Assembly (NCBI RefSeq): GCF_000769405.2
Contig: NZ_CP053440.1
Coordinates: 558,001 to 622,000 of the forward strand
Source of the DNA: Rhizobium brockwellii
Lineage (GTDB): Bacteria; Pseudomonadota; Alphaproteobacteria; Rhizobiales; Rhizobiaceae
Direction of reading: 5' to 3'
Length of the DNA: 64,000 bases
The translations under genes and the position numbers were made by a program. The notes below the pieces were generated by a model, which was not told the origin of the DNA, made no database searches, and saw only the letters and a list, made by a program, of their open reading frames with translations. How positions within the stretch are numbered: the stretch's first letter is position 1; each line of letters begins with the position of its first letter. Shown piece after piece: positions 39,829 to 61,404 of this stretch.

Positions 39829-39829
39829 C

Positions 39830-43613: not shown

Positions 43614-43643
43614 TGATCGCTCCGCTAGGATCAATTTACACGT

Positions 43644-43694: not shown

Positions 43695-44675
43695 TCAGGG
43701 CGCGACGATCGGCTGGGCCTTGAGGATCGAATCTACCACACGGGCGCCAGCAAACAGGCTTCCTTCCTCGAACCAGGATTTCGGCGCGGGAGCACCCCAT
43801 AGCGTCTGGCGCTGCGGATCCTTGAGATCCCATTTGATCGGTTCCAGGTCGGGATCGACCGTCTGATAATCCGAGCAATAGATCTCGATGCGGTGGCCAT
43901 CGGGATCGCGGATGTAGAGGAAGAAGGCATTGGATATGCCGTGCCGGCCGGGTCCGCGCTCGATATTGGGCAGCCAACCGGTGGTCGCCATCAAATCGAG
44001 CAGGTCGATGATATTGAGCGGCGTCGGAACCCAGAACGCGGTGTGATGCAAACGTGGACCGCGACCATTGGTAAACGCAATGTCGTGGACGCCACCCTTG
44101 CGGTGCGTCCATGCAGCCCAGAGCTTGCCGGTCTCCTCGTCGGCGGTGTATTCCGTCACCCGGAAGCCGATCTCATTGTAGAAGGCGACGCTTTCGTCGA
44201 CATTCGGTGAGAAGCAGTTGAAGTGATCGATTCGAAGCGGTTTCACGCCTCTGTAGAGGGCATATTTCTGGTGGATCGGCGGCAGGCGATCCATCTTGGA
44301 ATAGAATTCCAGCGGAATGCCGTGCGGATCGCGCGTGCGGAACGTGCGCGACTGGTAGGGCCGCTCGACCCATTCGACCGGAAGGCCCTTGCCCTTGAAG
44401 AAATGCTCCGCCTTATTGAGGTCCTCGTCGGAGAACACCTTGAAGCCGAGATCGCGTGCTTCGGCAGCGGCTTCTTTCTTCAGGACGATGCAGTGATGCC
44501 CTCGTTCCTCGAGCGCACGCAGATAGATCGTGTCGGCCGTCTCGTCGGTCACCTGCAAGCCGAGCGTGTCGACGTAGAAGGCTCGCGATTTCGCAAGATC
44601 GGTCACGGCAAGTTCGACATGGCTGAGGCGCACGATGTTAAAAGGCGGACAAAGATTGGGTGTGGGCAGGGGCAT
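43695..44675 (-). CDS. hpaD: 3,4-dihydroxyphenylacetate 2,3-dioxygenase
   Basis: 326 residues from ATG 44675, preceded by GGAGGAG; the longer frame to 44795 overlaps hpaE's end and is rejected. Two VOC modules: RLSHVELAVTDLAKSRAFYV in the first; iron ligands in RIDHFNCFSPNVDES, PRLHHTAFWVPTP and HRIEIYCSDYQT in the second. Extradiol (type I) Fe(II) or Mn(II) enzyme that opens homoprotocatechuate to 5-carboxymethyl-2-hydroxymuconate semialdehyde. Follows hpaE by 38 bases. Confidence 0.93.
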   Translation of the reverse strand: MPLPTPNLCPPFNIVRLSHVELAVTDLAKSRAFYVDTLGLQVTDETADTIYLRALEERGHHCIVLKKEAAAEARDLGFKVFSDEDLNKAEHFFKGKGLPVEWVERPYQSRTFRTRDPHGIPLEFYSKMDRLPPIHQKYALYRGVKPLRIDHFNCFSPNVDESVAFYNEIGFRVTEYTADEETGKLWAAWTHRKGGVHDIAFTNGRGPRLHHTAFWVPTPLNIIDLLDLMATTGWLPNIERGPGRHGISNAFFLYIRDPDGHRIEIYCSDYQTVDPDLEPIKWDLKDPQRQTLWGAPAPKSWFEEGSLFAGARVVDSILKAQPIVAP

Positions 44676-44713
44676 GGGGTTCTCCTCCAAATTCAATAGG
44701 ATGTACGGTGCAC

Positions 44714-46231
44714 TCAGCCGCCGAGTTTCTGGATCGCATGCGCCTTGGTGGCGAAAGCAACGTTCTTGGTCTCCATGTAGAAATCGAAGGACCAATCGCC
44801 GCCGTCACGGCCGATGCCGGAGTTCTTGACGCCGCCGAAAGGGGTCGGCAGATGGCGAACGTTTTCCGAGTTCACCCAGATCATCCCGGCTTCCAGGGCA
44901 TCGGTGAAGCGGAAGGCGCGGGTGACGTCCGAAGTCCAGAGGTAGCCGGTGAGGCCATATTGCACGTCGTTGGCAAGCGCCAGCGCATCGTCCTCGTCCT
45001 TGAAGGCGATCGCGGTCAGAACCGGTCCGAAGATTTCTTCCTGCGCGATACGCATTTGGTTGTTGGCGCCGGTGAAGAGAGTGGGGGATACGTAACATCC
45101 GCCACCCGGTCCTTCGAATTTCGTGCCGCCAGCGGCAACCGTCGCGCCGCCGGCTTTGCCGATCTGGATATACTCCAGGACCTTCTTTTCGTGCACGGGG
45201 TGGATCAGCGGACCGACCACAGTTTCTGGATCAAGGGGGTGGCCGACCTTGATGCGCTTGGCCTTCTCGGCGACCATCGCCGTGAAGCGGTCGTAGATGT
45301 TTTCCTCCACCAGCAAGCGGGAAGACGAGGTGCAGCGCTCGCCATTCAGCGAATAGATCATGAAGACGGCAGCATCGGCGGCACGTTCAAGGTCTGCATC
45401 GGCAAAAACGATCACGGGATTCTTGCCGCCGAGTTCGAAATGTACCCGCTTCAGCGTGTCGGCGCCTTGTTTCATGATCATCGAGCCGGTGCGGCTTTCG
45501 CCGACGAAGCCGATCGCTCTGATGGCGGGATGCTCGGTCAGCGCCTTGCCGGCGTCCTCGCCGAGGCCGTTGACGAGATTCCAGACACCCTTCGGCAAGC
45601 CCGCCTCTTCGGCGATCTCGACCAACAGCCGTGCCGTCAGCGGTGAAAACTCCGCCGGCTTGTGGACGATCGTGCAGCCGGCAGCGAGCGCCGGTGCTAT
45701 CTTCCAGGTCGACAGCATGAAGGGTGTATTCCATGGCGTAATGACGCCCACTGGTCCGATCGGTGCACGGCTGGTGAAGTTGACTTGACCATCCGCACGC
45801 AGCGTTTTGCCGTCACGGGCTTCCACGGCGCGGTCAGCGAAGAAGCGGAAGTTCTCGGCTCCGCGAAGGGCTGCCTTCGCCATGAATTTCAGCGATTGAC
45901 CGGTATCCATGCATTCGACGAACGCGATCTCTTCGGAACGCGCTACGATCGCGTCGGCAATCTTATGAAGAAGTTTCTTGCGCGCGTCGCCCGACATCGC
46001 GGCCCAGGCAGGAAAGGCAGCTTTTGCGGCTTGTGCCGCCCGGTCCACATCCGCTGCCTTGCCGTGTGCCACCTTTGCCAAGACCTTCAGATCGACCGGA
46101 GAGATGATGTCGAACGTGGTGCCATCGGCTGCAGGGATTGCTTCGCCAGCGATATGGTTCAGGACGCCGTCTTTACGAAAGCGAGCCAAATAGGCTTCGG
46201 CCTTTGCGATGTTTTCTTCCAGTGTCGACAT
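44714..46231 (-). CDS. hpaE: 5-carboxymethyl-2-hydroxymuconate semialdehyde dehydrogenase
   Basis: 505 residues from ATG 46231. ALDH fold with Cys in YSLNGERCTSSSRLLVEE, Glu in VHFELGGKNPVIVFAD and ITPWNTPFMLSTWKIAPALA. The ending SFDFYMETKNVAFATKAHAI with a Leu-Gly-Gly terminus is the HpaE pattern. It oxidises the ring-cleavage semialdehyde to 5-carboxymethyl-2-hydroxymuconate. Second gene of the leftward hpaF-hpaE-hpaD operon, 43 bases after hpaF. Confidence 0.93.
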   Translation of the reverse strand: MSTLEENIAKAEAYLARFRKDGVLNHIAGEAIPAADGTTFDIISPVDLKVLAKVAHGKAADVDRAAQAAKAAFPAWAAMSGDARKKLLHKIADAIVARSEEIAFVECMDTGQSLKFMAKAALRGAENFRFFADRAVEARDGKTLRADGQVNFTSRAPIGPVGVITPWNTPFMLSTWKIAPALAAGCTIVHKPAEFSPLTARLLVEIAEEAGLPKGVWNLVNGLGEDAGKALTEHPAIRAIGFVGESRTGSMIMKQGADTLKRVHFELGGKNPVIVFADADLERAADAAVFMIYSLNGERCTSSSRLLVEENIYDRFTAMVAEKAKRIKVGHPLDPETVVGPLIHPVHEKKVLEYIQIGKAGGATVAAGGTKFEGPGGGCYVSPTLFTGANNQMRIAQEEIFGPVLTAIAFKDEDDALALANDVQYGLTGYLWTSDVTRAFRFTDALEAGMIWVNSENVRHLPTPFGGVKNSGIGRDGGDWSFDFYMETKNVAFATKAHAIQKLGG

Positions 46232-46274
46232 GCTTTTCTCCGATGTGTCCTGCTTGCGGTCAATCACTGCGGCG

Positions 46275-46667
46275 CTAACCGTCTGTCTTGCGCAGGCGCG
46301 GGTGGATGGCGTTTTTCTTCCAGCTTAGCGCCGGGTCGATTTCGCGGATTTCGAGGGTGAGGGCGAAGTGCGGCGTCTCGAACAGCTTGCGGAGGTGTTC
46401 CGTGACGGCGGTGAAGATCGCTTCGCCGGTCCTACGCTTGTCCTCCTGGCTACGACCTTCGCCAATACGAAAGGACATATCGATGAAGGCGTTTTCATCG
46501 AGCAGATCGGCAATCGCATAGGCTTCGCACCGGATGGCGCGCACCCGCACGGCACCGGTCTCGAACAGACCCGTGCCGAGAATCTCGGCGTGGACAACAC
46601 GGCACAGCGCGTCGAAGTCCACTTTTCCGTCGAGATTAGCCGAATAATCCATGGTGAAATGCGGCAT
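46275..46667 (-). CDS. hpaF: 5-carboxymethyl-2-hydroxymuconate isomerase
   Basis: 130 residues from ATG 46667, preceded by GGGAGGA. Tautomerase-superfamily CHMI: after Met removal it begins with the catalytic Pro (MPHFTMDYSANL). SFRIGEGRSQEDKRRTGEAI and a terminal DPALSWKKNAIH are family marks. It isomerises the HpaE product to 5-oxopent-3-ene-1,2,5-tricarboxylate. First gene of the leftward operon; the palindromic operator lies 28 bases upstream of its start. Confidence 0.92.
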   Translation of the reverse strand: MPHFTMDYSANLDGKVDFDALCRVVHAEILGTGLFETGAVRVRAIRCEAYAIADLLDENAFIDMSFRIGEGRSQEDKRRTGEAIFTAVTEHLRKLFETPHFALTLEIREIDPALSWKKNAIHPRLRKTDG

Positions 46668-46694
46668 CGTTCCTCCCCGCGCCACGACCTCAGT

Positions 46695-46714
46695 ATATTT
46701 AACATGTTAAATAT
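46695..46714. promoter_or_regulatory. perfect 20-base palindrome, HpaR operator candidate
   Basis: ATATTTAACATGTTAAATAT reads the same on both strands. On the minus strand it covers a -10-like TAACAT that lies 17 bases from TTGACA (46732-46727), so a bound MarR dimer would block hpaF transcription about 30 bases from its start. It lies 71 bases before the HpaR gene, allowing autoregulation. Closely related sites occur at 53761 and 60161. Confidence 0.75.
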
Positions 46715-46732: not shown

Positions 46733-46785
46733 GGCATCGTGCCGGCCACGTTGCGCGGTTCAAGAAATTGATCCATAGAACCCTT

Positions 46786-47259
46786 ATGACCAAACAATCC
46801 CCTGACGATAACGGCATCATGCAGGATGCCCTGCTGCCCCGCGATACGCGCCGCTCGCTGCCGATTGCGTTGCTTCGGGCGCGTGAAGCGGTGATGGGGC
46901 ACTTCCGGCCCATGCTGGCGCTGCATGATGTGACGGAACAGCAATGGCGCGTCATTCGCATTCTGGCAGAGGCCGGAACACTGGATGCATCGGAGATGGC
47001 GGAACGGGCCTTTATTCTTGCTCCGAGCTTGACGCGGATCATTCGCTCTCTCGAGGAGCGCGGCGTCATCACCAAGAGCAAGGATGCTGAAGACGGCCGC
47101 CGGATACTGTTGCAGATCACAGCCGCAGGGCTGAAAATCATCAACGAGGTCAGTCCCGACAGCCGGACGATTTATACTGCGCTTGAGCAGCGGTTCGGCC
47201 GCGAGCGCATCGATACCTTGCTCGACATGCTCGACGAACTGGCGACGCTGAACAAATAG
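46786..47259 (+). CDS. hpaR: homoprotocatechuate pathway repressor, MarR family
   Basis: 157 residues from ATG 46786 (an upstream TTG-type start at 46768 is less likely). HpaR pattern: LPRDTRRSLPIALLRAREAV, then HDVTEQQWRVIRILAEAG, recognition helix region SEMAERAFILAPSLTRIIRS and wing AEDGRRILLQITAAG. HpaR represses the meta-cleavage genes and is released by 4-hydroxyphenylacetate or its dihydroxy form. It is divergent from hpaF across the palindrome. Confidence 0.9.
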   Translation: MTKQSPDDNGIMQDALLPRDTRRSLPIALLRAREAVMGHFRPMLALHDVTEQQWRVIRILAEAGTLDASEMAERAFILAPSLTRIIRSLEERGVITKSKDAEDGRRILLQITAAGLKIINEVSPDSRTIYTALEQRFGRERIDTLLDMLDELATLNK

Positions 47260-47273
47260 CACGGCCTCCGCTC

Positions 47274-48281
47274 CTATCTGCTGGCGCCGAGGCCATCTGC
47301 CAGCGCCAGAGCGTCGGCTACATAGCGCTGAAGCCGCTCTGCCGCATCCGGCGCGTCAATTCGCTGACCGATCCAGCCGATATACGTGATGCTGCGCAGA
47401 ACCATGAAGAGTGGCAGGGTTTCAATGGCGCTGTCCGGCAGCGACCGCACGCCGCGATATCCCTCGATCAACGCTGCTTTGATGAGTTCGTAGTGCGGCT
47501 CGTCGCGATTCTTGAACAAGGCTGTGGCGAGGTCGAACATTCGCCAGCCGTAGCCGGCATCGTCAAAGTCGATCAATTCGACATGATCGCCGTCTATGAG
47601 CACGTTTTCCCGAACGAGATCGGCATGGATGAGACCATAGTCGAGATGGCGGAGTGCATCGGTTTTCTCCCGCAGCAAAAGCCTGAGATTCGATAATTGC
47701 ATCGCCTGATTCGGCGACAGTCCCGCACAATCCCAGAATCGGCCCCAAAGCGGCTGCCTGCCAAGCAAACCGTTGCCGTCCCATGCCGGGCGGCGGAAGT
47801 TGGCCGGTGGTCTCCAGGCATCGGTGGCGGTGTGCAGCCGGGCCATGGCTTCGCCCAGCAAGCGGAAAATCACGACGAGGCGCTCACTGGAATGCACGAG
47901 AAGGACGCCCGATTGGCCGAGTGGGCTGCCGGTCATCCAGCTGACGATGTCGGCGTATTGGTCACCGAACTCAGGATTTGCGTCAAGCGCAACGATTTGG
48001 CGTCCATCCGGCGTGGAAACTGGTGCCGGAACGCGCAAGCCGGCCTCGCGCAAGGCTGCCATCCAGGAGAGTTCCGAAACCAAAGCAATTTCGTTGCGAT
48101 AGCCGGGCCGGTGCAGCCGCAGGGCTGCAGGCTCGCCGTTCCTGAGCGTCACCCGGAACACCGCATTCTCCCGGTATTTCAGGAGCTGGGGTGTCTGGGC
48201 GCCCAACTCCCAGCTGCCAAGGGCTTCGCATGCGCGCGCACTCAGCGCCTTCATGAAAGGGATGGATTCATGTTCCGACAT
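47274..48281 (-). CDS. APH-fold small-molecule kinase (hydroxylysine-kinase-like)
   Basis: 335 residues from ATG 48281; the earlier frame to 48383 overlaps the phospho-lyase. Aminoglycoside-phosphotransferase fold: catalytic loop LIHADLVRENVLIDGDHVEL with Asp and Asn, and metal-binding LIDFDDAGYGWRMFDLATAL. It starts 9 bases after a class III phospho-lyase-like gene. In vertebrates the APH-fold hydroxylysine kinase HYKK and the class III enzyme PHYKPL work in series, and bacterial kinase/lyase pairs act on amino alcohols. A role in phosphorylating an amino alcohol is therefore inferred; true antibiotic resistance is unlikely in this context. Confidence 0.75.
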   Translation of the reverse strand: MSEHESIPFMKALSARACEALGSWELGAQTPQLLKYRENAVFRVTLRNGEPAALRLHRPGYRNEIALVSELSWMAALREAGLRVPAPVSTPDGRQIVALDANPEFGDQYADIVSWMTGSPLGQSGVLLVHSSERLVVIFRLLGEAMARLHTATDAWRPPANFRRPAWDGNGLLGRQPLWGRFWDCAGLSPNQAMQLSNLRLLLREKTDALRHLDYGLIHADLVRENVLIDGDHVELIDFDDAGYGWRMFDLATALFKNRDEPHYELIKAALIEGYRGVRSLPDSAIETLPLFMVLRSITYIGWIGQRIDAPDAAERLQRYVADALALADGLGASR

Positions 48282-48289
48282 GGCCACCG

Positions 48290-49573
48290 TCACAATCCGG
48301 ACAAAACGTCGTCGAGCGTGGAAAGCATCAAATCGGCATTCTCCTTCGAAAATGGCATGGGTGGTCGGATCTTGGTCGCGCATTGATGCACCCCGATCTT
48401 GCCCATTAGGACGCCGCGCGCCCGCATGTCATTGATGACCTTCGTGGCGATGTCCGGCGCTGGGGTCTTTTTCTCACGGTCGAGAACCAGCTCCGCCCCG
48501 AAGAACAGGCCGCTGCCACGCACGTTGCCGATGACGTCATGTTTTTTGGATAGGCGTTTGAGGCCGTCTTGCGCATAGGCGCCGACGGCACGGGCGTTTT
48601 CCATCAGCCCTTCATCTTCGATCACGTCGAGGACCGCCAGGGCCGCAGCACAGGAAACCGGATTGCCGCCAAAGGTATTGAAATAGCGAAAGGCCTTGCG
48701 GAAGGCGTTCAGCGTGTCGGCATTGGCGACGACGCCGCCGACCGGATGGCCGTTGGCCATCGGCTTGCCGAGCGTCACCACGTCGGGCACGAAGCCTGCG
48801 CGCTGGTGGCCCCACATATGGCCGCCAGTGCGCCCGAAACCCGGCTGCACCTCGTCGGATATGACAAGCCCTCCCGCCTTGTGCACGGCAGTGATTGCCT
48901 TGTCGAGAAAGCCCGTCGGCAGGTCGGGAAATCCCTCATTGGCAAAGAACGGGCAGATGATGAGCGCCGAAAAGCCGTGCGGGCTGCTCTGCAGCGAGGC
49001 GATCGCCTTTTCCACTTCAGCGGCGAAAGCCTCCGCAAAGGCTTCGCCGGGCATACCACCCAGCGGCCGATAGCTGTCGGGCGCCGGCACGTGGCGGACA
49101 TGGCCGCCGAAGCCGCCGACCGGGGGCATGCGGGTAGAGAGCTGCGACACGGCCGCGGTATTGCCGTGGTAGGTATGGTTGGTCGCGATAACACCGGTCT
49201 TTCCCGTAACCGCCTGCGCCATACGCAACGCGATGTCGTTAGCTTCACTGCCGGTGCAGGTCATGATCGCAGTATCGAGGCTCTTGTCGAATGTCATCGT
49301 CAGCCGCTCGACATAGTCGAGGATGCCTTCATGCAGATAGCGCGTGTGGGTATTCAACGTCGACGCTTGCCGGGTGATCGCGTCGACCACGCGTGGGTGG
49401 CAGTGGCCGACGTGCGGCACATTGTTGTAGCAATCGAGATATTTCCGGCCGTCGGCATCCCACAGCCAGACACCTTCTCCACGCACCAGTTGCACGGGTT
49501 CGTCATAAAAGGTGGACATGTTTCGGCCAAGAAGGCGCTCGCGACGGGCGAGAAGTGCTGCGTTTTCCGCCAT
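48290..49573 (-). CDS. class III PLP enzyme, ethanolamine-phosphate phospho-lyase-like
   Basis: 427 residues. Segments almost identical in pattern to human ETNPPL/PHYKPL: YLDCYNNVPHVGHCHPRVVD, TGSEANDIALRMAQ, VISDEVQPGFGRTGGHMWG, the PLP lysine in VTLGKPMANGHPVGGVV, FNTFGGNPVSCAAALAVLD and IRPPMPFSKENADLM. These differ from ordinary omega-transaminases. The family eliminates phosphate and ammonia from O-phospho amino alcohols, leaving an aldehyde. Pairing with the kinase immediately downstream supports this. The natural substrate is unknown; beta-hydroxylated arylethylamines are suggested by the hpa genes around it. It follows the next upstream aminotransferase with no gap. Confidence 0.78.
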   Translation of the reverse strand: MAENAALLARRERLLGRNMSTFYDEPVQLVRGEGVWLWDADGRKYLDCYNNVPHVGHCHPRVVDAITRQASTLNTHTRYLHEGILDYVERLTMTFDKSLDTAIMTCTGSEANDIALRMAQAVTGKTGVIATNHTYHGNTAAVSQLSTRMPPVGGFGGHVRHVPAPDSYRPLGGMPGEAFAEAFAAEVEKAIASLQSSPHGFSALIICPFFANEGFPDLPTGFLDKAITAVHKAGGLVISDEVQPGFGRTGGHMWGHQRAGFVPDVVTLGKPMANGHPVGGVVANADTLNAFRKAFRYFNTFGGNPVSCAAALAVLDVIEDEGLMENARAVGAYAQDGLKRLSKKHDVIGNVRGSGLFFGAELVLDREKKTPAPDIATKVINDMRARGVLMGKIGVHQCATKIRPPMPFSKENADLMLSTLDDVLSGL

Positions 49574-49574
49574 G

Positions 49575-50936
49575 TCATTTGCCTCCCGCGGCAGCTGTCA
49601 GGCCTGCCTCGAGTGCGGCGAGGATCCGATCTACACCGGCCGTGGTGATGATAAGCGGCGGCGAGATGATCACGTTGGAGCCGGAGGTACGCACCATCAC
49701 GCCGGCGTCGTAGGCCGCGTCTTGCAGGCGCTGGACCACATCCTTCGGCGCGCCAGTCTTTGCCGCGCGATCCGTCACCAGTTCCAGCGCGCACATCAGC
49801 CCTTTGCCGCGCACGTCGCCGATCAGTTCGTGTTTTTCCTTCAGTCTGTTCAGACCGGCCAGCAGTTCGTTGCCGCGCGCGCCTGCATTGGCGGCCACGT
49901 TGAGGCGCTTGGTTTCCTTGAGTGTCGCCAGCGCCGCCGCTGCACCCACAGGGTGGCCGGAATAGGTGTAGCCATGGCCGATGGTGCCGACGGTGTTCTT
50001 GTTGGCCTCGAAGGCTTCCGCGATCTTGTCGGAAATCATTACGGCACCGAAGGGATAATAGCCGTTGGTAATCGCCTTGGCGGTCGACATCAGGTCGGGC
50101 CTGGTGCCCCACAGGCGTGATCCCGTCCAGGCGCCGGTGCGACCAAAGGCCGTGATAACCTCGTCGGCGATCAGAAGAATGCCGTTCTTGTCGCAGATGG
50201 CACGCATTAGCGGCATGAAGGTTTCGTGCGGCACCATGATGCCGCCGGCACCCAGAACTGGCTCCATGATGAAGGCGGCGATCGTATCGGCGCCCTGGAA
50301 GGCGATCTCGTCTTCGAACTGACGACCGATGGCCGCGGCGATTTCCGCCGGATCGTCGGTGCCGAAGGGATTGCGGTAGCCATAGGGAGCCGCCAGGTGC
50401 GAAACGCCCGGGAGCAGCGGCTCGTAGTTGCGACGGTTGTTGGCATTGCCGTTGACGGAGGCGCCGCCGAAATGGGTCCCATGATAGCCTTTCTTCAGCG
50501 CCACGAATTTGGTGCGCTCCGGCTGGCCGTTGACCTTGTGGTATTGGCGGGCAAGCCGCAGGCAGGTCTCCACCGAATCCGAACCGCCGGAAGTGAAGAA
50601 GGATCGGCTGAGGCCGTCTTCCTTGAACCACTCAGCCAGTTCGTAAGACAGTTCGATCAGCGGCGGATTGGTGGTGCCGCGAAAGGCGGAATAATAAGGG
50701 AGTTCCTCGAGCTGGTCACGGATGGCCTGTTTGATCGGATCGCAGGAATAGCCGAGGTTGACGTTCCAGAGCCCCCCGACGCCATCGAGCACCGTCTTGC
50801 CGTCGATATCGGTGATTTCGACACCGGAAGCCGCCCTGATGATGCGCGGCGGATTGGCCAACATGTCGGCGGGGTGCGCCATCGGGTGCCAGACATGACG
50901 GGCGTTGTTTTCGGTCAGAAAATTGGTTTCGCGCAT
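49575..50936 (-). CDS. class III omega-aminotransferase
   Basis: 453 residues from ATG 50936. Omega-amino acid/amine:pyruvate transaminase type: WHPMAHPADMLANPPRIIRA, FFTSGGSDSVETCLRLARQY, KKGYHGTHFGGASVNGN, LLIADEVITAFGRTGAWTGS and the PLP lysine in STAKAITNGYYPFGAVMISD. It would move the amino group of an amine (tyramine, dopamine or similar) to pyruvate, releasing an aryl acetaldehyde. Adjacent to the phospho-lyase-like gene (1 base) and overlapping region with the HAD gene upstream is minimal, so all are co-translated. Confidence 0.85.
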   Translation of the reverse strand: MRETNFLTENNARHVWHPMAHPADMLANPPRIIRAASGVEITDIDGKTVLDGVGGLWNVNLGYSCDPIKQAIRDQLEELPYYSAFRGTTNPPLIELSYELAEWFKEDGLSRSFFTSGGSDSVETCLRLARQYHKVNGQPERTKFVALKKGYHGTHFGGASVNGNANNRRNYEPLLPGVSHLAAPYGYRNPFGTDDPAEIAAAIGRQFEDEIAFQGADTIAAFIMEPVLGAGGIMVPHETFMPLMRAICDKNGILLIADEVITAFGRTGAWTGSRLWGTRPDLMSTAKAITNGYYPFGAVMISDKIAEAFEANKNTVGTIGHGYTYSGHPVGAAAALATLKETKRLNVAANAGARGNELLAGLNRLKEKHELIGDVRGKGLMCALELVTDRAAKTGAPKDVVQRLQDAAYDAGVMVRTSGSNVIISPPLIITTAGVDRILAALEAGLTAAAGGK

Positions 50937-50953
50937 ATCGCAGTCCTCTTCGT

Positions 50954-51604
50954 TCAAAGTCCAAGCATGGAAAGGGCGCGGGCATAGCCGTCCGCGGGCC
51001 GGGTAACGTCGAAATGGACGTTGGGAAGCTTGACGACGTCGGCGCCCTCAATGTTCTTCAACTGATCGTCGACGAAGACGCAGGCTTCGCGCGGAAGCCC
51101 GACCTCGGCGATCACCTGTTCATAGGCGCGCGCATCCGGTTTCAGGATCTTGGTGTAGGTGGCATCGACGATAACGTCGAAGAGATCGATCAGCGGGAAA
51201 CGCTTGCGAAATTCGACACCGTAGAAAAGATCAAGTTCATTCGAAAGGATGGCGAGCCGCAGGCCGGCGGCCTTGGCGCGGGTGATGGCGTCTGCCGCCT
51301 CCGGACGCAGCACGAGATCGGCATCGGCGCCGCGCGCCCGCTGGACGAAGGTCTTCATGTCGGTCCAATCCTCACCGACCAGCCGGCCGACTTCCGCGGT
51401 CCGTGTCATCCAGTAGTCGCGTTCGGTGATCTCACGGTTCTGCATCGCTACCCAAAGTGGATCGGTCGTCGTGTCGAACGGACCGCGCCAGGTGAGTGTG
51501 CCAGCGGCAAGGCCAAGCGCCCGCTCGGTGACGTCGTGCGTTTCGAACAGCGTGCGGGTGACGACGCCGCCGAAATCGAGAATGAGTGCGCGATCACCTG
51601 TCAT
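50954..51604 (-). CDS. HAD-superfamily hydrolase
   Basis: 216 residues from ATG 51604. Motif I LILDFGGVVTRTL with the nucleophile Asp (the second Asp is replaced by Gly, as in some HAD-IA members, so phosphatase activity may be altered). Motif II LAILSNELDLF, Lys in YTKILKPDARAYE, motif III CVFVDDQLKNIEGA. The start overlaps the UPF0261 stop (ATGA). In this operon it could remove phosphate from a side product of the kinase, or act on another phosphorylated metabolite. Confidence 0.8.
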   Translation of the reverse strand: MTGDRALILDFGGVVTRTLFETHDVTERALGLAAGTLTWRGPFDTTTDPLWVAMQNREITERDYWMTRTAEVGRLVGEDWTDMKTFVQRARGADADLVLRPEAADAITRAKAAGLRLAILSNELDLFYGVEFRKRFPLIDLFDVIVDATYTKILKPDARAYEQVIAEVGLPREACVFVDDQLKNIEGADVVKLPNVHFDVTRPADGYARALSMLGL

Positions 51605-52872
51605 GGCCTGCCTTCCGGGATGATGCCCTGTGCAACCCACGCATCGAATACGGCAAGGGCTTTTGTGGAGAATTGGGAGGAGTTGATGTGGCCATCGACC
51701 TCATGCAAGTCGACGGATTGGGGGAGGGCCCGGCGCATCGCGTCGATAAAGGCTGAAAGGCCTTCCGGATCATGCAGTGGTTCGCCCAGCTGGTCCCACT
51801 CCTGAATGCCTGCAAGCGGCAGGATCAGGGCGACCGGCGCCTGCGCGCCGCCAAGTTTTTCTCCGATCAGCGCAGCCGTCGCCCGGCGTCCTTCCGGCGA
51901 GGTGGTGACCGAGCCGATCAGCCGGTTGTGTGCGTGATAAGGTCGGTCGGCAAGTGCCGCCGGCAGCGGCTGCCACGCGGGCAGGTCAACCATATCGACG
52001 GCGCCGGGCGCAACGATCTGCGGTATGCCTGCGCGGCCCGCATTTTCCATGCGGTCCGGACCGGAGGTGACCACGGTGCCATTCTGGTGGTTGACGACTT
52101 CCTGCATGCAGAAGTCGAACACCGCGGCAAAGCCTTTCTGCGAGGCGATCGCCTCGAAGGCCCGTCCGCCCATGCCGGTCGAGTGGAATACTGCGACCTC
52201 ATAGCCGCGTTTTTCGAGTTCCGGCTTCAAGTGTTTCATGTATTTGAGGCAGGTGGAACCGAGGGAGGTCATTCCGATCAACGGCCGCTCCGCCTTGGGC
52301 TTCACGCAGGAACGGGCGGCCCCGACGACGGCACCGCAGGCCTGGGAAAGCACGGCGCGGCAGATGTCGTTCAATCCGTAAAGTCCGCCGGCCCAAAGTA
52401 TCATCATCAAGTCCGGGGCGATGCGCTCCGGCGGCACGAGATGCGAATAGGCAATCGTCGAGACCACGAATTTGGGAACGCCGAGCGGCAGGGCAGCTGC
52501 CACGTCAAGCGCGAGGTCCGTGCCCATCGAGCCGCCGAGAACAATGATGCCATCGGCCTTTCCGGTCGCATGCAAAGTTCCGACGAGAGCCGCAGCGCCG
52601 GTTGACATCAGCCTCATCGCTGAATTTTCGTCGCCGCTGCCGATGATCGCTTCGATCGATGTTCCCGCCGATTTGGCGATGTCGTGCCGGGAATAATCAG
52701 GCGTATAAGGCGGATCTGACAGGATACTGACGTCGACCATAATCGGTTTTGCGCCAGCATCGCGGATGATGCCCGCCATGAACTGAAGCTCGTCGGACTT
52801 GGTGTCGCCGGTTCCAATCACAAGGATGCTGGGTGGACGTGATTGTTCTGGCGAAGGCTCTGCTGGGCTCAT
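51601..52872 (-). CDS. UPF0261 / Tm-1-like ATP-binding protein
   Basis: 423 residues. ILVIGTGDTKSDELQFMAGI at the start, then GGSMGTDLALDVAAALPLGV and LIGMTSLGSTCLKYMKHLKP, match the Tm-1-like ATP-binding domain (UPF0261). Plant Tm-1 joins this domain to a TIM barrel; bacteria usually keep the barrel as a separate gene next door, but no such gene is in the window. Function in bacteria is unknown. It sits 11 bases after the IclR gene and overlaps the HAD gene, so it belongs to the amine operon. Confidence 0.82.
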   Translation of the reverse strand: MSPAEPSPEQSRPPSILVIGTGDTKSDELQFMAGIIRDAGAKPIMVDVSILSDPPYTPDYSRHDIAKSAGTSIEAIIGSGDENSAMRLMSTGAAALVGTLHATGKADGIIVLGGSMGTDLALDVAAALPLGVPKFVVSTIAYSHLVPPERIAPDLMMILWAGGLYGLNDICRAVLSQACGAVVGAARSCVKPKAERPLIGMTSLGSTCLKYMKHLKPELEKRGYEVAVFHSTGMGGRAFEAIASQKGFAAVFDFCMQEVVNHQNGTVVTSGPDRMENAGRAGIPQIVAPGAVDMVDLPAWQPLPAALADRPYHAHNRLIGSVTTSPEGRRATAALIGEKLGGAQAPVALILPLAGIQEWDQLGEPLHDPEGLSAFIDAMRRALPQSVDLHEVDGHINSSQFSTKALAVFDAWVAQGIIPEGRP

Positions 52873-52883
52873 TCAACCGATCC

Positions 52884-53657
52884 TCATGTTTGCGTTTTTG
52901 TTCCCGAAGGCCGCTCCGGCCCGTAGTATTTTTCTGAGATGCGTTTGGCTGTGTCGACGACGGCTGCGCCGAAGTTTGCCAGAGTGGCTGTGCGCGCGCG
53001 CGCCAGCGGCGCCGCGATGGTGACTGAGCCGATCGGTTGACCGGCCGGCGAAAGAATGGGAGCTCCGGTGCTGACGACGCCGACCTCGAGACCCTGGCTG
53101 CTGATCGAAAATCCGCGCGCGACCGTTTCGTCTATCATTTTGCGGACGGCGGCCGGATCGGTCACGGTGTGCTCGGTAAAAGCGTCCAGTGGCTGCAACA
53201 GGGCCGACTCGATGTAATTTTTTTCGGAGAAGGCCAGATAGGCGAGGCCCGACGCCGTAGCGTGGAAAGGCAGGCGCGTGCCGATCTCGACGATGACCCG
53301 GTGCGCGCGCGGTGAGTCCTCGACGTGGATCGTTGAAAGTGTGCTGCCGCTGAATTCGGCGAGATGAACAGTTTCCTCAGACTTTTCAGCGAGCTCCCTT
53401 ACGAAGGGGATGGCGACCCGCAGGAACGGAAAGCGCGCCTCACGAATCCGCGCCAGGCGAACCGGCGCTGAACCGATCCTGTATCTGCGCGTCTCCGGAT
53501 CCTGCTCAACGAAGCCATGCTTTTCCAATTCGACAAGCAGGCGGCGGGCCGTCGCCTTGTCGAGGTCGCAGAGACGGGCGATATCGGTCAATCCCGCTTC
53601 GTGGTTGAGTTGCGACAGGCTGTCCAGCAAGGACAGTGCTTTTCCGACGGTGCTCAT
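52884..53657 (-). CDS. IclR-family transcriptional regulator
   Basis: 257 residues. N-terminal winged helix: MSTVGKALSLLDSLSQLNHE, then AGLTDIARLCDLDKATARRL and HGFVEQDPETRRYRIGSAPV. C-terminal effector domain with GTRLPFHATASGLAYLAFSE and GVVSTGAPILSPAGQPIGSV. First gene of the leftward amine operon, and divergent from the permease/ALDH genes; a symmetrical site in between (53824-53842) is the expected operator. The ligand is probably an aromatic amine or its product. Confidence 0.9.
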   Translation of the reverse strand: MSTVGKALSLLDSLSQLNHEAGLTDIARLCDLDKATARRLLVELEKHGFVEQDPETRRYRIGSAPVRLARIREARFPFLRVAIPFVRELAEKSEETVHLAEFSGSTLSTIHVEDSPRAHRVIVEIGTRLPFHATASGLAYLAFSEKNYIESALLQPLDAFTEHTVTDPAAVRKMIDETVARGFSISSQGLEVGVVSTGAPILSPAGQPIGSVTIAAPLARARTATLANFGAAVVDTAKRISEKYYGPERPSGTKTQT

Positions 53658-53823: not shown

Positions 53824-53842
53824 TGGTTCAATATATGAACCA
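53824..53842. promoter_or_regulatory. IclR operator candidate (inverted repeat)
   Basis: TGGTTCAATATATGAACCA: perfect 7-base arms TGGTTCA/TGAACCA around five A/T bases, the size and symmetry expected for an IclR-family dimer site. It lies 167 bases upstream of iclR and 138 upstream of the permease. The remaining divergent region shows no gene. Confidence 0.65.
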
Positions 53843-53979
53843 TATGCGCTGACCTGCGCGCGGCCAAGAGCAAAAGAAAAAACGCGGCAGATTAGTCCGG
53901 TTCGAAATGACGGCGGTTTGGGAGGATGCGTTTTCCCGGAGCGCAATCGGATAGTTGCAACAAGGGGAACTTGAGCAAA

Positions 53980-55431
53980 ATGGACAATCAATTCTCAACA
54001 GGCGCAGATGAAAACCAGCTGCGCAAGAACAGTCTCGGCGTCGGCGCCGTGACATTTCTGGTGGTTTCGGCCGCAGCGCCGCTGACGGCGGTCGCCGGCG
54101 GTGTGCCTCTGTCGATGATGCTCGGCAATGGGCCGGGCATCCCGCTGACCTTTCTGCTGGTTACGGCGATCCTCGTACTGTTTGCGGTCGGCTACGTCGC
54201 CATGGCGCGCCACATCCGCAATGCCGGTGCCTTTTATGCGTATACCGCGCAGGGTCTCGGCGGCATGATGGGCGGTGCAGCCGCCCTCATCGCCATCCTT
54301 GCCTACAATGCCATGCAGATTGGCGTTTTCGGTCTCTTCGGTGCGGCAACCGCAGGGTTCTTCGCGGGCATCGGCCTTGAATTGCCATGGTGGGTCTGGA
54401 CCTATATCGGCATCGCCGTCGTCGCGGTCTTCGGCTATCGGCGCGTTGATCTGTCGGCCAAGATATTGACGGTCCTCGTCATTCTTGAATATGTCGTCGT
54501 GCTGGTCATCGACGCCGCTATCTTGCTCAAGGGCGGTGACAGCGGCATCTCGGCCGTACCCTTCACGCCCGCCGCCTTCATGAGCGGAACGCCGGCAATC
54601 GGCATTCTCTTCTGCTTTGCAGCGTTCATCGGCTTCGAAGCCACCACGATATACAGCGAGGAAGCCCGCGAGCCGCACAAGACCGTGCCGCGCGCGACCT
54701 ATATCTCTGTCCTTATTATCGGCCTCTTCTACATGCTCACCTCATGGCTGATGGTCAACGGCGCCGGCGCCGACAAGCTCGTTCCCGAACTGCAGGGCCT
54801 GGCCGATCCTACGACCTTCCTCTTCGGGCTTGCCGAACGCTATGTCGGTCACTGGATCGTCCCGGTCATGAACGTACTCTTCATCACCAGCCTGTTTGCC
54901 GGCGTGCTCGCCTTCCACAATGGCGTTGCCCGCTACATGTATGTCGCCGGCCGCGAAGGTCTGCTGCCGAAGTCTGTTGGTGTCACCCACCCTGTCTTCC
55001 AGAGCCCGCATGTCGGTTCGGTGATCCAGACGATTGTCGCCGCTCTCGTCATCGCGCTCTTCGCCTTTACGGGGCAGGATCCCGTGCTTGCCCTCTTTTC
55101 GTGGCTCACCAATGTCGGCACGCTTGCCATCATTCTGCTGATGGCCTTCACCGCATTCGCCATCGTCGCCTTCTTCAGCCGCAATCCTGGCCTTGAGGGC
55201 AACGTTCTGGTGACCAAGATCTTGCCGGTGATCACCGGCATCATCCTGCTGGGACTAGTCTACTATATCACGGTGAATTTCGGCGCGATCGCCGGCGCAA
55301 GCGGTGTGCTCGCCGTGCTTCTGCCGGGGCTGGTGGTGATTGCCGCCATTGTCGGCTTGATGGCAGCTGCCCGTCTGAAGTCGGAAGATGCTGCCGGTTT
55401 TGCCCGGCTCGGCGCCGGACAGGAAGCCTGA
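53980..55431 (+). CDS. APC-family amino acid/amine permease
   Basis: 483 residues from ATG 53980 with AAGGGG upstream. About 12 membrane segments. Opening NSLGVGAVTFLVVSAAAPLT, then VAGGVPLSMMLGNGPGIPLT, and the conserved GFEATTIYSEEAREPHKTVP in the cytoplasmic loop are typical of the APC superfamily (YfnA/amine-permease branch). It probably brings an aromatic amine, amino alcohol or amino acid into the cell for the operon. A hairpin separates it from the aldehyde dehydrogenase. Confidence 0.88.
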   Translation: MDNQFSTGADENQLRKNSLGVGAVTFLVVSAAAPLTAVAGGVPLSMMLGNGPGIPLTFLLVTAILVLFAVGYVAMARHIRNAGAFYAYTAQGLGGMMGGAAALIAILAYNAMQIGVFGLFGAATAGFFAGIGLELPWWVWTYIGIAVVAVFGYRRVDLSAKILTVLVILEYVVVLVIDAAILLKGGDSGISAVPFTPAAFMSGTPAIGILFCFAAFIGFEATTIYSEEAREPHKTVPRATYISVLIIGLFYMLTSWLMVNGAGADKLVPELQGLADPTTFLFGLAERYVGHWIVPVMNVLFITSLFAGVLAFHNGVARYMYVAGREGLLPKSVGVTHPVFQSPHVGSVIQTIVAALVIALFAFTGQDPVLALFSWLTNVGTLAIILLMAFTAFAIVAFFSRNPGLEGNVLVTKILPVITGIILLGLVYYITVNFGAIAGASGVLAVLLPGLVVIAAIVGLMAAARLKSEDAAGFARLGAGQEA

Positions 55432-55489: not shown

Positions 55490-56968
55490 ATGCAGGACAA
55501 GATCGACCGCCTCCGCTCGAGCGTCGTCTCGCCGCAATCGCTGTTCATTGGCGGCGAGTGGCGTACACCTTTAAGCGGCGCGACAATGGATGTCATCTCG
55601 CCGATCGACGGATCGAAATTGACGACTATCGGCGATGCCGGGGCGGCGGATGTCGATCTCGCCGTTAGGGCTGCGCGCGCCGCTTTCGAGAAGGGAGCGT
55701 GGTCGAAGGCAGCTCCCGGCGAGCGCAAGAAAATCCTGTTCCGGATCGCCGAACTGATCGAGCGTGACGCGCTGGAAATGGCGGTTCTCGGCGTGCGCGA
55801 CAACGGTACGGAAATCAGTATGGCCCTGAAAGCCGAGCCCGGCAGCGCCGCCGCCACCTTCCGCTATTACGCCGAAGCCCTCGACAAGGTCTACGGCGAA
55901 ATTGCACCCACCTCCGAAAGCGTTCTCGGCCTCATTCACCGCGAGCCCGTCGGCGTCGTCGCCGCTATCGTGCCGTGGAATTTCCCGATGATGATCGGCG
56001 CCTGGAAGATCGCGCCGGCGCTGGCAGCCGGCAACTCGGTGGTGCTGAAGCCCGCCGAAGGCGCATCGCTCAGCCTTCTGAAACTGGCGGCGCTGTGTGC
56101 TGAAGCCGGCTTGCCGGAGGGAGTGCTCAATGTTGTCACCGGCCGCGGCACGGTCGCCGGCGAGGCGATCGGCCTGCATGGCGATATCGATGTTCTCGTT
56201 TTCACCGGCTCCGGCAGCGTCGGCCGCCGGCTGCTCGAATATTCGGCGCGCTCCAACCTGAAGCGGGTCTATCTCGAACTGGGCGGCAAATCGCCCAACA
56301 TCGTCTTCGCCGATGCGCCGGACCTCGAACAGGCCGCCAAGGTCTCGGCATTCGGCATCTTCAGAAACTCGGGACAGGTCTGCGTTGCCGGGTCGAGACT
56401 CCTGGTCGAGCGGTCGATCCACGAAGCCTTCGCAGAACGGATTTCAGCTATTGCCGGGAGGATAAAGGTTGGTGATCCGCTGTTGCTCTCGACGGACTCC
56501 GGCGCCATCTCCAGCGAGATACAGCTCGAGAAGGACCTCGGTTTCGCTGATCAGGCGTTGTCCGAAGGTGCAAGACTGAGAACCGGCGGCGGGCGCATTC
56601 TTCAAGACACCGGCGGGTTCTACATGCAGCCAACCGTGTTCGAGGTGACGCCGCAGATGACGCTGGCCAAAGAGGAGGTTTTCGGGCCGATCCTCTCCAT
56701 CATTCCCTTCGATGACGAGACGGATGCGCTTAACATTGCCAATGCCACACCCTATGGCCTCGCTTCAGCCGTGTGGACCAGCAACCTGTCTCGCGCCCAT
56801 CGCATGGTGCAGGGGGTCAAGGCCGGCGTCGTCCACGTCAATACCTATGGCGGCGCCGACAACACCGTGCCGCTCGGCGGCATCCGCCAGTCGGGCAACG
56901 GCCACGACAAGTCGCTACACGCCATGGATAAGTATCACAATCTGAAGACGGCGTGGATCCAGCTCTAG
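55490..56968 (+). CDS. NAD(P)-dependent aldehyde dehydrogenase, PuuC/phenylacetaldehyde-type
   Basis: 492 residues from ATG 55490 with GAGGAG upstream. Catalytic Cys in RNSGQVCVAGSRLLVE (about 297), Glu in YLELGGKSPNIVFA, Rossmann segment IVPWNFPMMIGAWKIAPALA. Near relatives are gamma-glutamyl-aminobutyraldehyde and phenylacetaldehyde dehydrogenases. Placed with the amine permease and opposite the aminotransferase/phospho-lyase operon, it likely oxidises the resulting aldehyde (e.g. 4-hydroxyphenylacetaldehyde) to the acid used by HpaB. Confidence 0.88.
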   Translation: MQDKIDRLRSSVVSPQSLFIGGEWRTPLSGATMDVISPIDGSKLTTIGDAGAADVDLAVRAARAAFEKGAWSKAAPGERKKILFRIAELIERDALEMAVLGVRDNGTEISMALKAEPGSAAATFRYYAEALDKVYGEIAPTSESVLGLIHREPVGVVAAIVPWNFPMMIGAWKIAPALAAGNSVVLKPAEGASLSLLKLAALCAEAGLPEGVLNVVTGRGTVAGEAIGLHGDIDVLVFTGSGSVGRRLLEYSARSNLKRVYLELGGKSPNIVFADAPDLEQAAKVSAFGIFRNSGQVCVAGSRLLVERSIHEAFAERISAIAGRIKVGDPLLLSTDSGAISSEIQLEKDLGFADQALSEGARLRTGGGRILQDTGGFYMQPTVFEVTPQMTLAKEEVFGPILSIIPFDDETDALNIANATPYGLASAVWTSNLSRAHRMVQGVKAGVVHVNTYGGADNTVPLGGIRQSGNGHDKSLHAMDKYHNLKTAWIQL

Positions 56969-57089: not shown

Positions 57090-57602
57090 TCAACCTCCGA
57101 AGCTGCCAATTTGCGTCGGGACATGAACGTAATTCCGGTCAAAATACAGTAACGCATTGCCATCGGGGCGGGATCGGATGCCGGCGATCCGCCCGATGAA
57201 AATGTGATGGCTGCCGACAAGTCTTGCCTCAGACAGCTCGCAATCAAATGAGACGATCGCATCCGCGAGAGCATCCGTACCTGAAGGCATTGCGACCCAA
57301 TCCGCAGAGGCGTAACGCGCCTCCATATCGGCGGTTGCTCCGGCGAATTTCCCGGCTAGCTCTCTGTGGTCGTGACTTAATACGTTCACGCAAAACCGGT
57401 GGTTTTCCAGAAACAGTGCAGTTTGGGCGGATCGGCTATTCATGCAGACGAGCAGCGTCGGCGGCTCATCCGTGACGCTGCACATGGCCGTGGCGGTGAA
57501 CCCGCCGCGACCGGCGGGACCATTGGTGGTGATGACGTTGACCGGCGCGCAAACGCGCGCCATGGCGTTGCGGAACTCGGTTTTGGAAAAGGCCTCCTCC
57601 AT
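57090..57602 (-). CDS. hpaC: 4-hydroxyphenylacetate 3-monooxygenase reductase
   Basis: 170 residues. Flavin reductase domain: FRNAMARVCAPVNVITTNGP, then GRGGFTATAMCSVTDEPPTL, LFLENHRFCVNVLSHDHREL and the end DRNYVHVP. It reduces FAD (or FMN) with NAD(P)H and passes it, freely diffusing, to HpaB. Starts 10 bases after hpaB on the same strand. Confidence 0.92.
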   Translation of the reverse strand: MEEAFSKTEFRNAMARVCAPVNVITTNGPAGRGGFTATAMCSVTDEPPTLLVCMNSRSAQTALFLENHRFCVNVLSHDHRELAGKFAGATADMEARYASADWVAMPSGTDALADAIVSFDCELSEARLVGSHHIFIGRIAGIRSRPDGNALLYFDRNYVHVPTQIGSFGG

Positions 57603-59174: not shown

Positions 59175-59272
59175 GTCGTCCTCCCTTGATGTGAGACAAA
59201 TGCTAGTCCTTGCGTTCGCCTCCCACCATGGACAGAATAGGGAAATCACTTGTACTTTTTACGGCGGCCAGC

Positions 59273-60163: not shown

Positions 60164-60180
60164 TTAACATGTGAAATATA
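60161..60180 (+). promoter_or_regulatory. HpaR-like operator copy before the feaR-like gene
   Basis: TAGTTAACATGTGAAATATA matches the hpaF palindrome at 16 of 20 positions and the 53761 copy closely. It abuts TTGACAGG (60181-60188). The first three bases are the hpaA stop codon. It suggests HpaR control over the feaR-like gene, ALDH and GMC oxidase. Confidence 0.6.
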
Positions 60181-60306
60181 TTGACAGGGCGATCGATCTT
60201 CGCCACTCTTTCAGTTTACCGGTCTCAGGTGTTGCCGCCTTTTTGCGCTTGTGGGAGAGTCGCGCGAGACGGACATGTCGTTGACTGACACTGTTGGGAG
60301 GCAGAG

Positions 60307-61278: not shown

Positions 61279-61404
61279 TGCGGTTTGAATAGTTGATGAG
61301 CCGACGGCCTGTTGCGTTTCAGACCAAGTCGCGGCGCGCTCCTGCCCAAGACGGCTTTCTTTTGCCCCGTCATACTCCTTCCAAAGCTCAGGGAGGAGCC
61401 AATC

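What the first reader, a model, noticed from the sequence alone, without database searches (positions are those of the whole stretch)
47274..53657. Kinase plus phospho-lyase operon beside a full hpa pathway: candidate route for beta-hydroxylated arylethylamines
Seen: a leftward, overlapping set of iclR, UPF0261, HAD, omega-transaminase, ETNPPL/PHYKPL-like class III enzyme and APH-fold kinase. Known: ETNPPL/PHYKPL enzymes eliminate phosphate and ammonia from O-phosphorylated amino alcohols, and HYKK-type kinases make such phosphates; biochemical work described amino-alcohol phospho-lyase activity on phenylethanolamine-type compounds. Inferred: octopamine or noradrenaline is phosphorylated and eliminated to (di)hydroxyphenylacetaldehyde, then oxidised and degraded by HpaB-I. 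The gene set as a unit is not one I know to be described.
Basis: partly seen in the sequence, partly recalled or inferred. Interest (0 to 1): 0.85.

Follow-up and report, generated by a model that had tools for sequence, protein, structure and literature searches.

The report
Kinase–lyase branch of an hpa pathway
A soil bacterium carries, wired into its pathway for eating 4-hydroxyphenylacetate, a kinase and a phosphate-removing lyase that probably break down octopamine- or noradrenaline-like amines; the substrate is still a prediction, but it can be tested directly.

Summary
The operon is real. Six leftward genes (iclR, UPF0261, HAD, class III transaminase, phospho-lyase, APH-fold kinase) lie between hpaBC and hpaR-hpaF-E-D-G-H-I; a divergent permease–aldehyde dehydrogenase pair travels with them. 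The lyase is nearest to solved phospho-lyases, the kinase to a solved aminopropanol kinase. The hpa link is not chance. In a sample of 151 genomes of the window's family, all 13 with a close lyase have HpaD (34 of 151 overall). Kinase and lyase also sit beside hpa genes, in other gene orders, in Rhodobacteraceae, and a distant pair sits near an hpc cluster in Sphingobium. A HpaR-operator-like site occurs at three places in the 7.1-Mb genome, all in this window: before hpaF, before this operon and before a FeaR-like gene. A DOPA-decarboxylase-like gene in the hpa operon favours aromatic amines. Against: in the Rhodobacteraceae sample the co-occurrence is weak and many kinase–lyase genes lie away from hpaD; many relatives lack the site before the set; no assay identifies the substrate. 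Best reading: a HpaR-controlled phosphorylation–elimination route for beta-hydroxylated arylethylamines, a known reaction type in a setting I did not find described.

The parts
47274..48281 (-). APH-fold amino-alcohol kinase (likely start 48281; the longest ORF starts at 48383)
48290..49573 (-). PLP-dependent amino-alcohol O-phosphate phospho-lyase (class III aminotransferase fold)
   Evidence: Best PDB sequences 5g4i phospholyase 414 bits and 6tor ethanolamine-phosphate phospho-lyase 356 bits; next class III enzyme 204 bits
49575..50957 (-). Class III transaminase (PRK07481 type), candidate for non-hydroxylated arylethylamines (ORF as listed)
   Evidence: NF005683 753.6 bits, cut-off 575; nearest solved sequences 6s54 (430 bits) and 5lh9 omega transaminase (417 bits)
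50954..51640 (-). HAD hydrolase, role unknown (ORF as listed)
   Evidence: PF00702, PF13419
51601..52872 (-). UPF0261 (Tm-1-like) protein, role unknown
52884..53657 (-). IclR-family regulator, first gene of the operon
   Evidence: PF09339, PF01614
53764..53778 (+). HpaR-operator-like site TTAACATGCGAAATA in the divergent promoter region
   Evidence: One of three such places in the whole genome; a match with at most one mismatch in the same gap in 37 of 39 rhizobial loci
53825..53841 (+). Palindrome GGTTCA-N5-TGAACC, likely IclR operator (inferred)
   Evidence: Only perfect match in the window, 0 of 100 shuffles had one; perfect match in the same gap in 35 of 39 rhizobial loci
53926..55431 (+). 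APC-type amino acid/amine permease
   Evidence: PF13520 1.3e-26
55490..56968 (+). Aldehyde dehydrogenase (PuuC/StyD-like), candidate arylacetaldehyde dehydrogenase
   Evidence: PuuC 536 bits (cut-off 850), StyD 456 bits (cut-off 800)
57090..57602 (-). HpaC-like flavin reductase
   Evidence: HpaC 154.6 bits (cut-off 206), RutF 181 (cut-off 255)
57612..59249 (-). HpaB-like 4-hydroxyphenylacetate 3-monooxygenase
   Evidence: HpaB-2 755 bits (cut-off 885)
46768..47259 (+). HpaR regulator
   Evidence: TIGR02337 169.9 bits, cut-off 121.2
46696..46713 (.). HpaR-operator-like palindrome TATTTAACATGTTAAATA between hpaR and hpaF
   Evidence: palindrome-like site before hpaF in 40 of 41 rhizobial loci at up to two mismatches
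46275..46685 (-). hpaF-like isomerase
   Evidence: NF011605 87.6 bits, below cut-off 215
44714..46267 (-). hpaE
   Evidence: TIGR02299 776 bits, cut-off 638
43695..44795 (-). hpaD
   Evidence: TIGR02295 426 bits, cut-off 321
42198..43634 (-). Aromatic amino acid (DOPA/tyrosine-type) decarboxylase inside the hpa operon
   Evidence: Best PDB 7xin DOPA decarboxylase 377 bits, 6eei tyrosine decarboxylase 325
40720..42174 (-). Succinate-semialdehyde dehydrogenase (GabD)
   Evidence: NF008415 854.6 bits, cut-off 828
39830..40699 (-). hpaG-like FAH-family protein
   Evidence: TIGR02303 154 bits, below cut-off 276
39025..39894 (-). hpaH
   Evidence: TIGR02312 438 bits, cut-off 351.5
38201..39013 (-). 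hpaI
   Evidence: TIGR02311 403 bits, cut-off 368.8
60164..60178 (+). Third HpaR-operator-like site, upstream of a FeaR-like gene

Best explanation
The operon is an upper branch of the 4-hydroxyphenylacetate (hpa) regulon for aromatic amines. A beta-hydroxylated arylethylamine (octopamine or noradrenaline type) enters through the APC permease (inferred). The kinase phosphorylates its beta-hydroxyl with ATP (inferred from the aminopropanol kinase fold). The PLP lyase eliminates phosphate and ammonia to give a (di)hydroxyphenylacetaldehyde (inferred from the phospho-lyase family). The divergent ALDH oxidises this to 4-hydroxy- or 3,4-dihydroxyphenylacetate (inferred), which HpaBC and HpaD-I degrade (known pathway; genes shown here). 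The transaminase probably gives the same aldehydes from tyramine or dopamine, which the decarboxylase in the hpa operon could supply (inferred). HpaR, through the shared operator-like site, and the operon's own IclR are the likely regulators (inferred). Shown here: gene content, synteny in several lineages, co-occurrence, and the shared site.
For: Lyase next to solved phospho-lyases, well above other class III enzymes; kinase next to an aminopropanol kinase. Kinase and lyase match the two ends of the same long family models PRK06148 and PRK06149. 40 of 42 named rhizobial loci hold the lyase with at least two hpa core genes. Other gene orders beside hpa: Rhodobacteraceae L061-L063, L068, L069, Phaeobacter porticola (L128 and L094, the same plasmid), G073 (L130), and G460 (L129), where lyase and kinase directly follow hpaF-E-D-G-H-I with no transaminase, HAD, UPF0261 or IclR match in the 19-kb stretch. 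A 50%-identical lyase with a kinase lies near an hpc cluster in Sphingobium. Window's family: HpaD in 13 of 13 genomes with a lyase of at least 65% identity, against 34 of 151 overall, p 5e-10; 0 of 4 with only 50-55% lyases. Class-wide: 5 of 7 against 7 of 385. TTAACATGNNAAATA at three places in 7.1 Mb, all here, reversed control 0. In rhizobial relatives a match with at most one mismatch lies in the permease/iclR gap in 37 of 39 loci and before hpaF in 17 of 41; at two mismatches before hpaF in 40 of 41. DOPA-decarboxylase-like gene in the hpa operon.
Against: No substrate was tested. In the Rhodobacteraceae sample the association is weak (lyase 51, HpaD 50, both 24 of 149 genomes, p 0.017; within 20 kb of hpaD in 6). 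Two close-lyase genomes in the class sample (G437, G172) have no HpaD match. TctABC replaces the APC permease in P. porticola, and a TRAP permease lies near the G460 cluster; such systems usually carry organic acids (recalled). The operator pattern was drawn from the sites themselves. Of 26 further loci scanned, 13 show no match at two mismatches, 12 of them with the set, and 7 show it only at hpaR. The decarboxylase is in only 13 of 42 rhizobial loci and not in the nearest relative L009. HAD and UPF0261 have no assigned step.
Confidence: 0.55

Rival explanations
1. The pair serves N-methylated arylethanolamines (synephrine or adrenaline type): a demethylase, where present, frees the primary amine before phosphorylation and elimination; in Rhizobium a demethylated product is used.
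For: A DAO–GCV_T oxidase resembling sarcosine/dimethylglycine dehydrogenases lies in the cluster in L126, L134, L135 and L070, and an OYE-family oxidoreductase in L134, L070 and, cut by the stretch end, L135. The genomes of L134 and L135 (G021, G066) have HpaD.
Against: Only 4 loci carry the oxidase; none is the window's. The other two genomes (G437, behind L126; G548, behind L070) have no HpaD match.
Confidence: 0.12
2. Kinase and lyase act on small amino alcohols (ethanolamine or 1-amino-2-propanol), as their nearest solved relatives do, and the hpa neighbourhood is secondary.
For: Nearest solved enzymes: phospholyase 5g4i, ethanolamine-phosphate phospho-lyase 6tor and aminopropanol kinase 6ef6. 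Kinase–lyase pairs with a lyase 68-71% identical exist without the set or hpa matches in the stretch (L049-L051, L053, L058); their neighbours read like housekeeping genes (my reading, no family scan).
Against: 13 of 13 co-occurrence with HpaD in the window's family, the shared operator-like site, arrangements in several lineages, and the aromatic amino acid decarboxylase. Acetaldehyde or propionaldehyde would have no use for hpa.
Confidence: 0.18
3. The unit degrades a hydroxylated aromatic amino acid or another aromatic amine (such as 3,4-dihydroxyphenylserine after decarboxylation), with the lyase acting on a substrate not considered here.
For: Decarboxylase in the hpa operon (13 of 42 rhizobial loci; also L068, L069); organic-acid-type transporters in relatives.
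Against: The decarboxylase is absent from most rhizobial loci that keep the kinase–lyase unit.
Confidence: 0.1
4. The class III enzyme is only a second transaminase and the kinase serves detoxification.
Against: Sequence score separates the enzyme from transaminases (414 and 356 against 204 bits); a kinase match lies on the same strand in 78 of 80 loci.
Confidence: 0.05

Closest known systems
Amino-alcohol kinase / phospho-lyase modules (ETNPPL, PHYKPL with HYKK; A1RDF1 phospholyase 5g4i)
   Same: Same two enzyme families, same predicted chemistry (phosphorylate the alcohol, eliminate phosphate and ammonia to an aldehyde)
   Different: Tied to an aromatic ring-cleavage regulon instead of lipid head groups or hydroxylysine (roles recalled)
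Microcompartment-associated aminopropanol kinase (6ef6)
   Same: Nearest solved kinase, 33% identity
   Different: No shell protein among the genes scanned around the operon; hpa regulon context
4-Hydroxyphenylacetate (hpa/hpc) meta-cleavage pathway
   Same: HpaR, HpaD, HpaE, HpaH, HpaI over curated cut-offs; HpaB/C/F/G-like genes present
   Different: Carries a candidate upper branch from amines through a phosphorylated intermediate
Phenylethylamine/tyramine route (TynA amine oxidase, FeaB, FeaR; recalled)
   Same: Makes arylacetaldehydes from arylethylamines; FeaR-like and StyD-like genes adjoin
   Different: In the operon a transaminase and a kinase–lyase pair stand where that route has an amine oxidase

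Membership tests
Amino-alcohol O-phosphate phospho-lyase (ETNPPL/PHYKPL/A1RDF1) | Closer in sequence to solved phospho-lyases than to transaminases | tested here: met
   414 and 356 bits against 204 for the next class III enzyme
Amino-alcohol O-phosphate phospho-lyase (ETNPPL/PHYKPL/A1RDF1) | Releases phosphate, ammonia and aldehyde; no transamination | not testable with these tools
   needs enzyme assay
Amino-alcohol kinase (6ef6 type) | APH fold with best match to aminopropanol kinase | tested here: met
Amino-alcohol kinase (6ef6 type) | Phosphorylates an amino alcohol | not testable with these tools
   needs enzyme assay
Microcompartment aminopropanol pathway | Shell proteins encoded with the kinase | tested here: not met
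   None among the operon, flanking and hpa genes scanned; the rest of the genome was not searched for them
hpa meta-cleavage pathway | HpaR, D, E, H, I over curated cut-offs | tested here: met
hpa meta-cleavage pathway | HpaB, HpaC, HpaF, HpaG equivalogs | tested here: inconclusive
   Family matches, but below the equivalog cut-offs
HpaR regulon | Shared operator with the hpa operon | tested here: inconclusive
TynA/FeaB phenylethylamine route | FeaR equivalog with amine oxidase TynA | tested here: inconclusive
   FeaR-like gene at 178 bits, cut-off 199; no amine oxidase named among the scanned genes next to it; genome not searched for TynA

The most novel reading that the evidence does not exclude
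An undescribed, HpaR-controlled bacterial catabolic route for octopamine, noradrenaline and kin, in which the side-chain hydroxyl is phosphorylated and removed with the amine by a PLP lyase, with UPF0261 (a fold seen with a bound phenolic ketone) as an unassigned extra enzyme; present in rhizobia and Rhodobacteraceae and, in part, in Sphingobium.
Probability: 0.45. Interest if true: 0.75.

Novelty: new variant of a known kind. Interest (0 to 1): 0.62.

Why it matters
If true, it gives a gene-level route by which plant-associated and marine bacteria consume octopamine-type amines and catecholamines: plant amides of octopamine and tyramine, animal neurotransmitters and drugs share this skeleton (recalled). 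It gives a substrate class to a bacterial branch of the ETNPPL family for which I found none in the papers searched. It places UPF0261, a family named as uncharacterised in Pfam, in an aromatic pathway. It predicts a regulon that a gel shift or a growth test can check quickly.

Tried and rejected
Homogentisate dioxygenase (HmgA) as an alternative ring cleavage in genomes without HpaD: over the cut-off in 6 of the 9 HpaD-less genomes and also in G544, which has HpaD; uninformative. HpcB-type dioxygenase in the family of G346: no match in 21 genomes and no positive control there, so the Sphingobium case rests on three plasmids with lyases 97-100% identical, of which one was read for context. HpeHI phenol kinase as an explanation for UPF0261: rejected, it is rifampin-phosphotransferase-like (PMC12167813, PMC9618137, passages). 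VceA/VceB as a link for UPF0261: no support (passages of PMC11837543 and PMC9618137; PMC12607616 passages). Clade-specific lyase positions (F209, F215, F295) could mean a more aromatic pocket, but without coordinates I do not use them as evidence. Papers on A1RDF1, the aminopropanol kinase, E. coli HpaR and hydroxylysine kinase are not held; what I say of them beyond database names is recalled. PMC8154272: passages.

The lyase identity classes (65%, 62%) were chosen after seeing the hits; E-value limits differ between searches (HpaD 1e-110 in families, 1e-90 in the class, 1e-70). The tree (125 sequences, FastTree, midpoint root, support values not printed) left out 13 in-genome paralogues or duplicates (L002-L008, L097-L102) and, by its rule, lyases under 40% identity. 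One search's criterion finds the kinase within 250 nt in 70 of 80 loci; searches show a kinase match on the same strand in all but L044 and L084.
Full report
What is there. They are almost contiguous. The kinase's longest ORF overlaps the lyase by 94 nt; the internal ATG at 48281, 8 nt after the lyase stop, is the likelier start. Across a 268-bp gap lie a divergent APC permease and an ALDH. hpaC- and hpaB-like genes follow, then an HpaA-like AraC regulator; to the left are hpaR, hpaF-E-D, a DOPA-decarboxylase-like gene, gabD, and hpaG-H-I. So the unit sits inside an hpa cluster.

Conservation of the unit. Of 80 named loci with a relative of the lyase, 42 are rhizobial by name and identity. Of these, 40 hold at least two hpa core genes in the stretch fetched; the transaminase is in 41, HAD, UPF0261, iclR and permease in 39 each, the ALDH in 38. 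The exceptions are a 5.4-kb contig that still shows hpaR and hpaF (L012) and L044. Of the 38 other loci, five meet the same hpa criterion, with a different gene order (L061-L063, L068, L069); the others do not, some being short contigs.

Further arrangements. G460 (L129) has hpaF-E-D-G-H-I-lyase-kinase in one run with no match to the transaminase, HAD, UPF0261 or iclR. Phaeobacter porticola (L094; L128 is the same plasmid) has hpaD-E-F, hpaR, UPF0261, ALDH, TctABC, iclR, transaminase, an MBL-fold protein, lyase and kinase. G073 (L130) has the whole set convergent to hpaB-C, hpaR and hpaF-E-D-G-H. Sphingobium sp. TomTYG72 has a 50%-identical lyase and a kinase, 5.7 and 4.6 kb from an hpc cluster with HpaR. 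In a tree of 125 lyases the window's falls with its close relatives and the Sphingobium lyase lies outside that group (support not printed).

Co-occurrence. Window's family, 151 genomes: HpaD in 34; lyase of at least 65% identity in 13, and all 13 have HpaD (hypergeometric p 5e-10). Four genomes with only 50-55% lyases have none. Lyase and hpaD are within 7 kb in 7 of the 13, far apart on one contig in 1, and on different contigs in 5. Class sample, 385 genomes: HpaD in 7; lyase of at least 62% in 7, of which 5 have HpaD; none of the other 29 lyase-bearing genomes has it. Family of G481 (Rhodobacteraceae), 149 genomes: lyase 51, HpaD 50, both 24, Fisher p 0.017; within 20 kb in 6 genomes. So the tie is strong in the window's family and weak in Rhodobacteraceae. 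Of 26 genomes behind named non-rhizobial loci, 19 have HpaD: by my sorting, 12 of the 14 whose locus carries the set (at least two of transaminase, UPF0261, iclR), and 7 of the 12 whose locus has the kinase–lyase pair alone.

Shared regulatory site. The iclR/permease gap contains TTAACATGCGAAATA and the palindrome GGTTCA-N5-TGAACC. The pattern TTAACATGNNAAATA has four matches at three places in the whole 7.1-Mb genome, all in this window: a perfect palindrome between hpaR and hpaF, the iclR/permease gap, and the gap before a FeaR-like gene; the reversed control has none. In 42 rhizobial loci (848 kb) there are 60 matches with at most one mismatch, palindromes counted on both strands: 37 between permease and iclR/UPF0261 and 23 before hpaF or hpaE, none elsewhere; one shuffle of each locus gave none. 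By locus, the permease/iclR gap has it in 37 of 39, the pre-hpaF gap in only 17 of 41 (counting L020). With two mismatches allowed a site lies before hpaF in 40 of 41 (all but L020, whose exact site lies outside the 900-nt limit used), typically a variant such as TTAACGTGTTAA. The GGTTCA palindrome is in the gap in 35 of 39.

Outside these loci the picture is mixed. Of 26 further loci, six have the exact site at hpaR (L061-L063, L068, L069, L071); P. porticola and G460 have weaker ones there. Six have a match of one or two mismatches before the set or the lyase (L052, L060, L070, L071, L130 and the Sphingobium locus L096). Thirteen have none at all, twelve of them with the set (L055, L057, L066, L074, L076, L077, L080, L081, L094, L126, L134, L135). 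The E. coli hpaR-hpaG gap has TTAACATATTAA, one mismatch from TTAACATGTTAA; 23 of 200 shuffles also gave a match at up to two mismatches, so this is weak. All this fits a HpaR operator without proving it. The pattern was made from the sites, so its rarity is not a fair p-value, and rhizobial loci are related.

Why aromatic amines. The hpa operon contains a group II decarboxylase nearest to DOPA and tyrosine decarboxylases. It keeps the aligned His (DQVHTS) and Tyr (QPEYLK) that I recall as typical of decarboxylases rather than aldehyde synthases. Relatives of it are in 13 of 42 rhizobial loci (not in the nearest, L009) and next to hpa genes in L068 and L069. The transaminase, ALDH, permease and FeaR-like neighbour fit amines. 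Four relatives carry an N-demethylase-like protein in the cluster. The UPF0261 model matches a UPF0261 protein solved with acetovanillone, a phenolic ketone. Kinase–lyase chemistry needs a hydroxyl on the carbon next to the amine-bearing one; with hpa downstream, the simplest such substrates are octopamine, noradrenaline and their kin. This last step is inference.

Against. No assay. TctABC stands in for the permease in P. porticola, and genes that read like it in others (no family scan); a TRAP permease lies near the G460 cluster. Kinase–lyase pairs with a lyase 68-71% identical stand without the set. Two close-lyase genomes, G437 and G172, have no HpaD match. HAD and UPF0261 have no step.

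Literature. Seven searches on the enzymes and the pathway and three on UPF0261 and acetovanillone showed no description of the gene set or of an octopamine/noradrenaline phospho-lyase pathway in bacteria. I saw listings, some capped (20 of 23, 20 of 74, 15 of 217, 12 of 24), and the library holds only openly licensed papers. PMC8154272 (passages) names ethanolamine-phosphate phospho-lyase and one close relative as the only such lyases documented among class III enzymes before its own.

Verdict. Ordinary enzymes and a known reaction type, in a conserved regulon setting that I did not find described and that makes a specific, testable pathway prediction.

Noticed in passing
window 42198-43634: DOPA/tyrosine-type decarboxylase inside the hpa operon, also in 13 of 42 rhizobial loci and in L068/L069
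   Followed up: partly
window 59210-62811 and L149 1816-9825: HpaA-like AraC regulator, FeaR-like regulator, StyD-like ALDH, then beyond the window a GMC oxidoreductase, a branched-chain-type ABC transporter, an SDR and a second FeaR-like gene; a HpaR-operator-like site precedes the first FeaR-like gene, so it may be another aromatic branch
   Followed up: partly
L126, L134, L135, L070: DAO–GCV_T (sarcosine/dimethylglycine dehydrogenase-like) protein with kinase, lyase and UPF0261
   Followed up: partly
L094 11185-13113: Phenol-hydroxylase-type FAD monooxygenase directly after the kinase on the Phaeobacter porticola plasmid
   Followed up: no
L060, L063, L066, L068, L069, L071: A glutamine-synthetase-like gene (my reading of the sequence; no family scan made) near the cluster, possibly a gamma-glutamyl-amine synthetase
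   Followed up: no
G000:C1:4706019-4707290: Second, 37%-identical lyase in a 985-residue open frame, possibly a kinase-lyase fusion (domains not scanned)
   Followed up: no
window 18581-19582: ArdC-type anti-restriction protein (ArdcN plus zincin-like domain), a possible sign of mobile DNA
   Followed up: no
window 2004-4241 and 9581-11923: MGH1-like and GH3 glycoside hydrolases, with a solute-binding protein at 4607-5683
   Followed up: no
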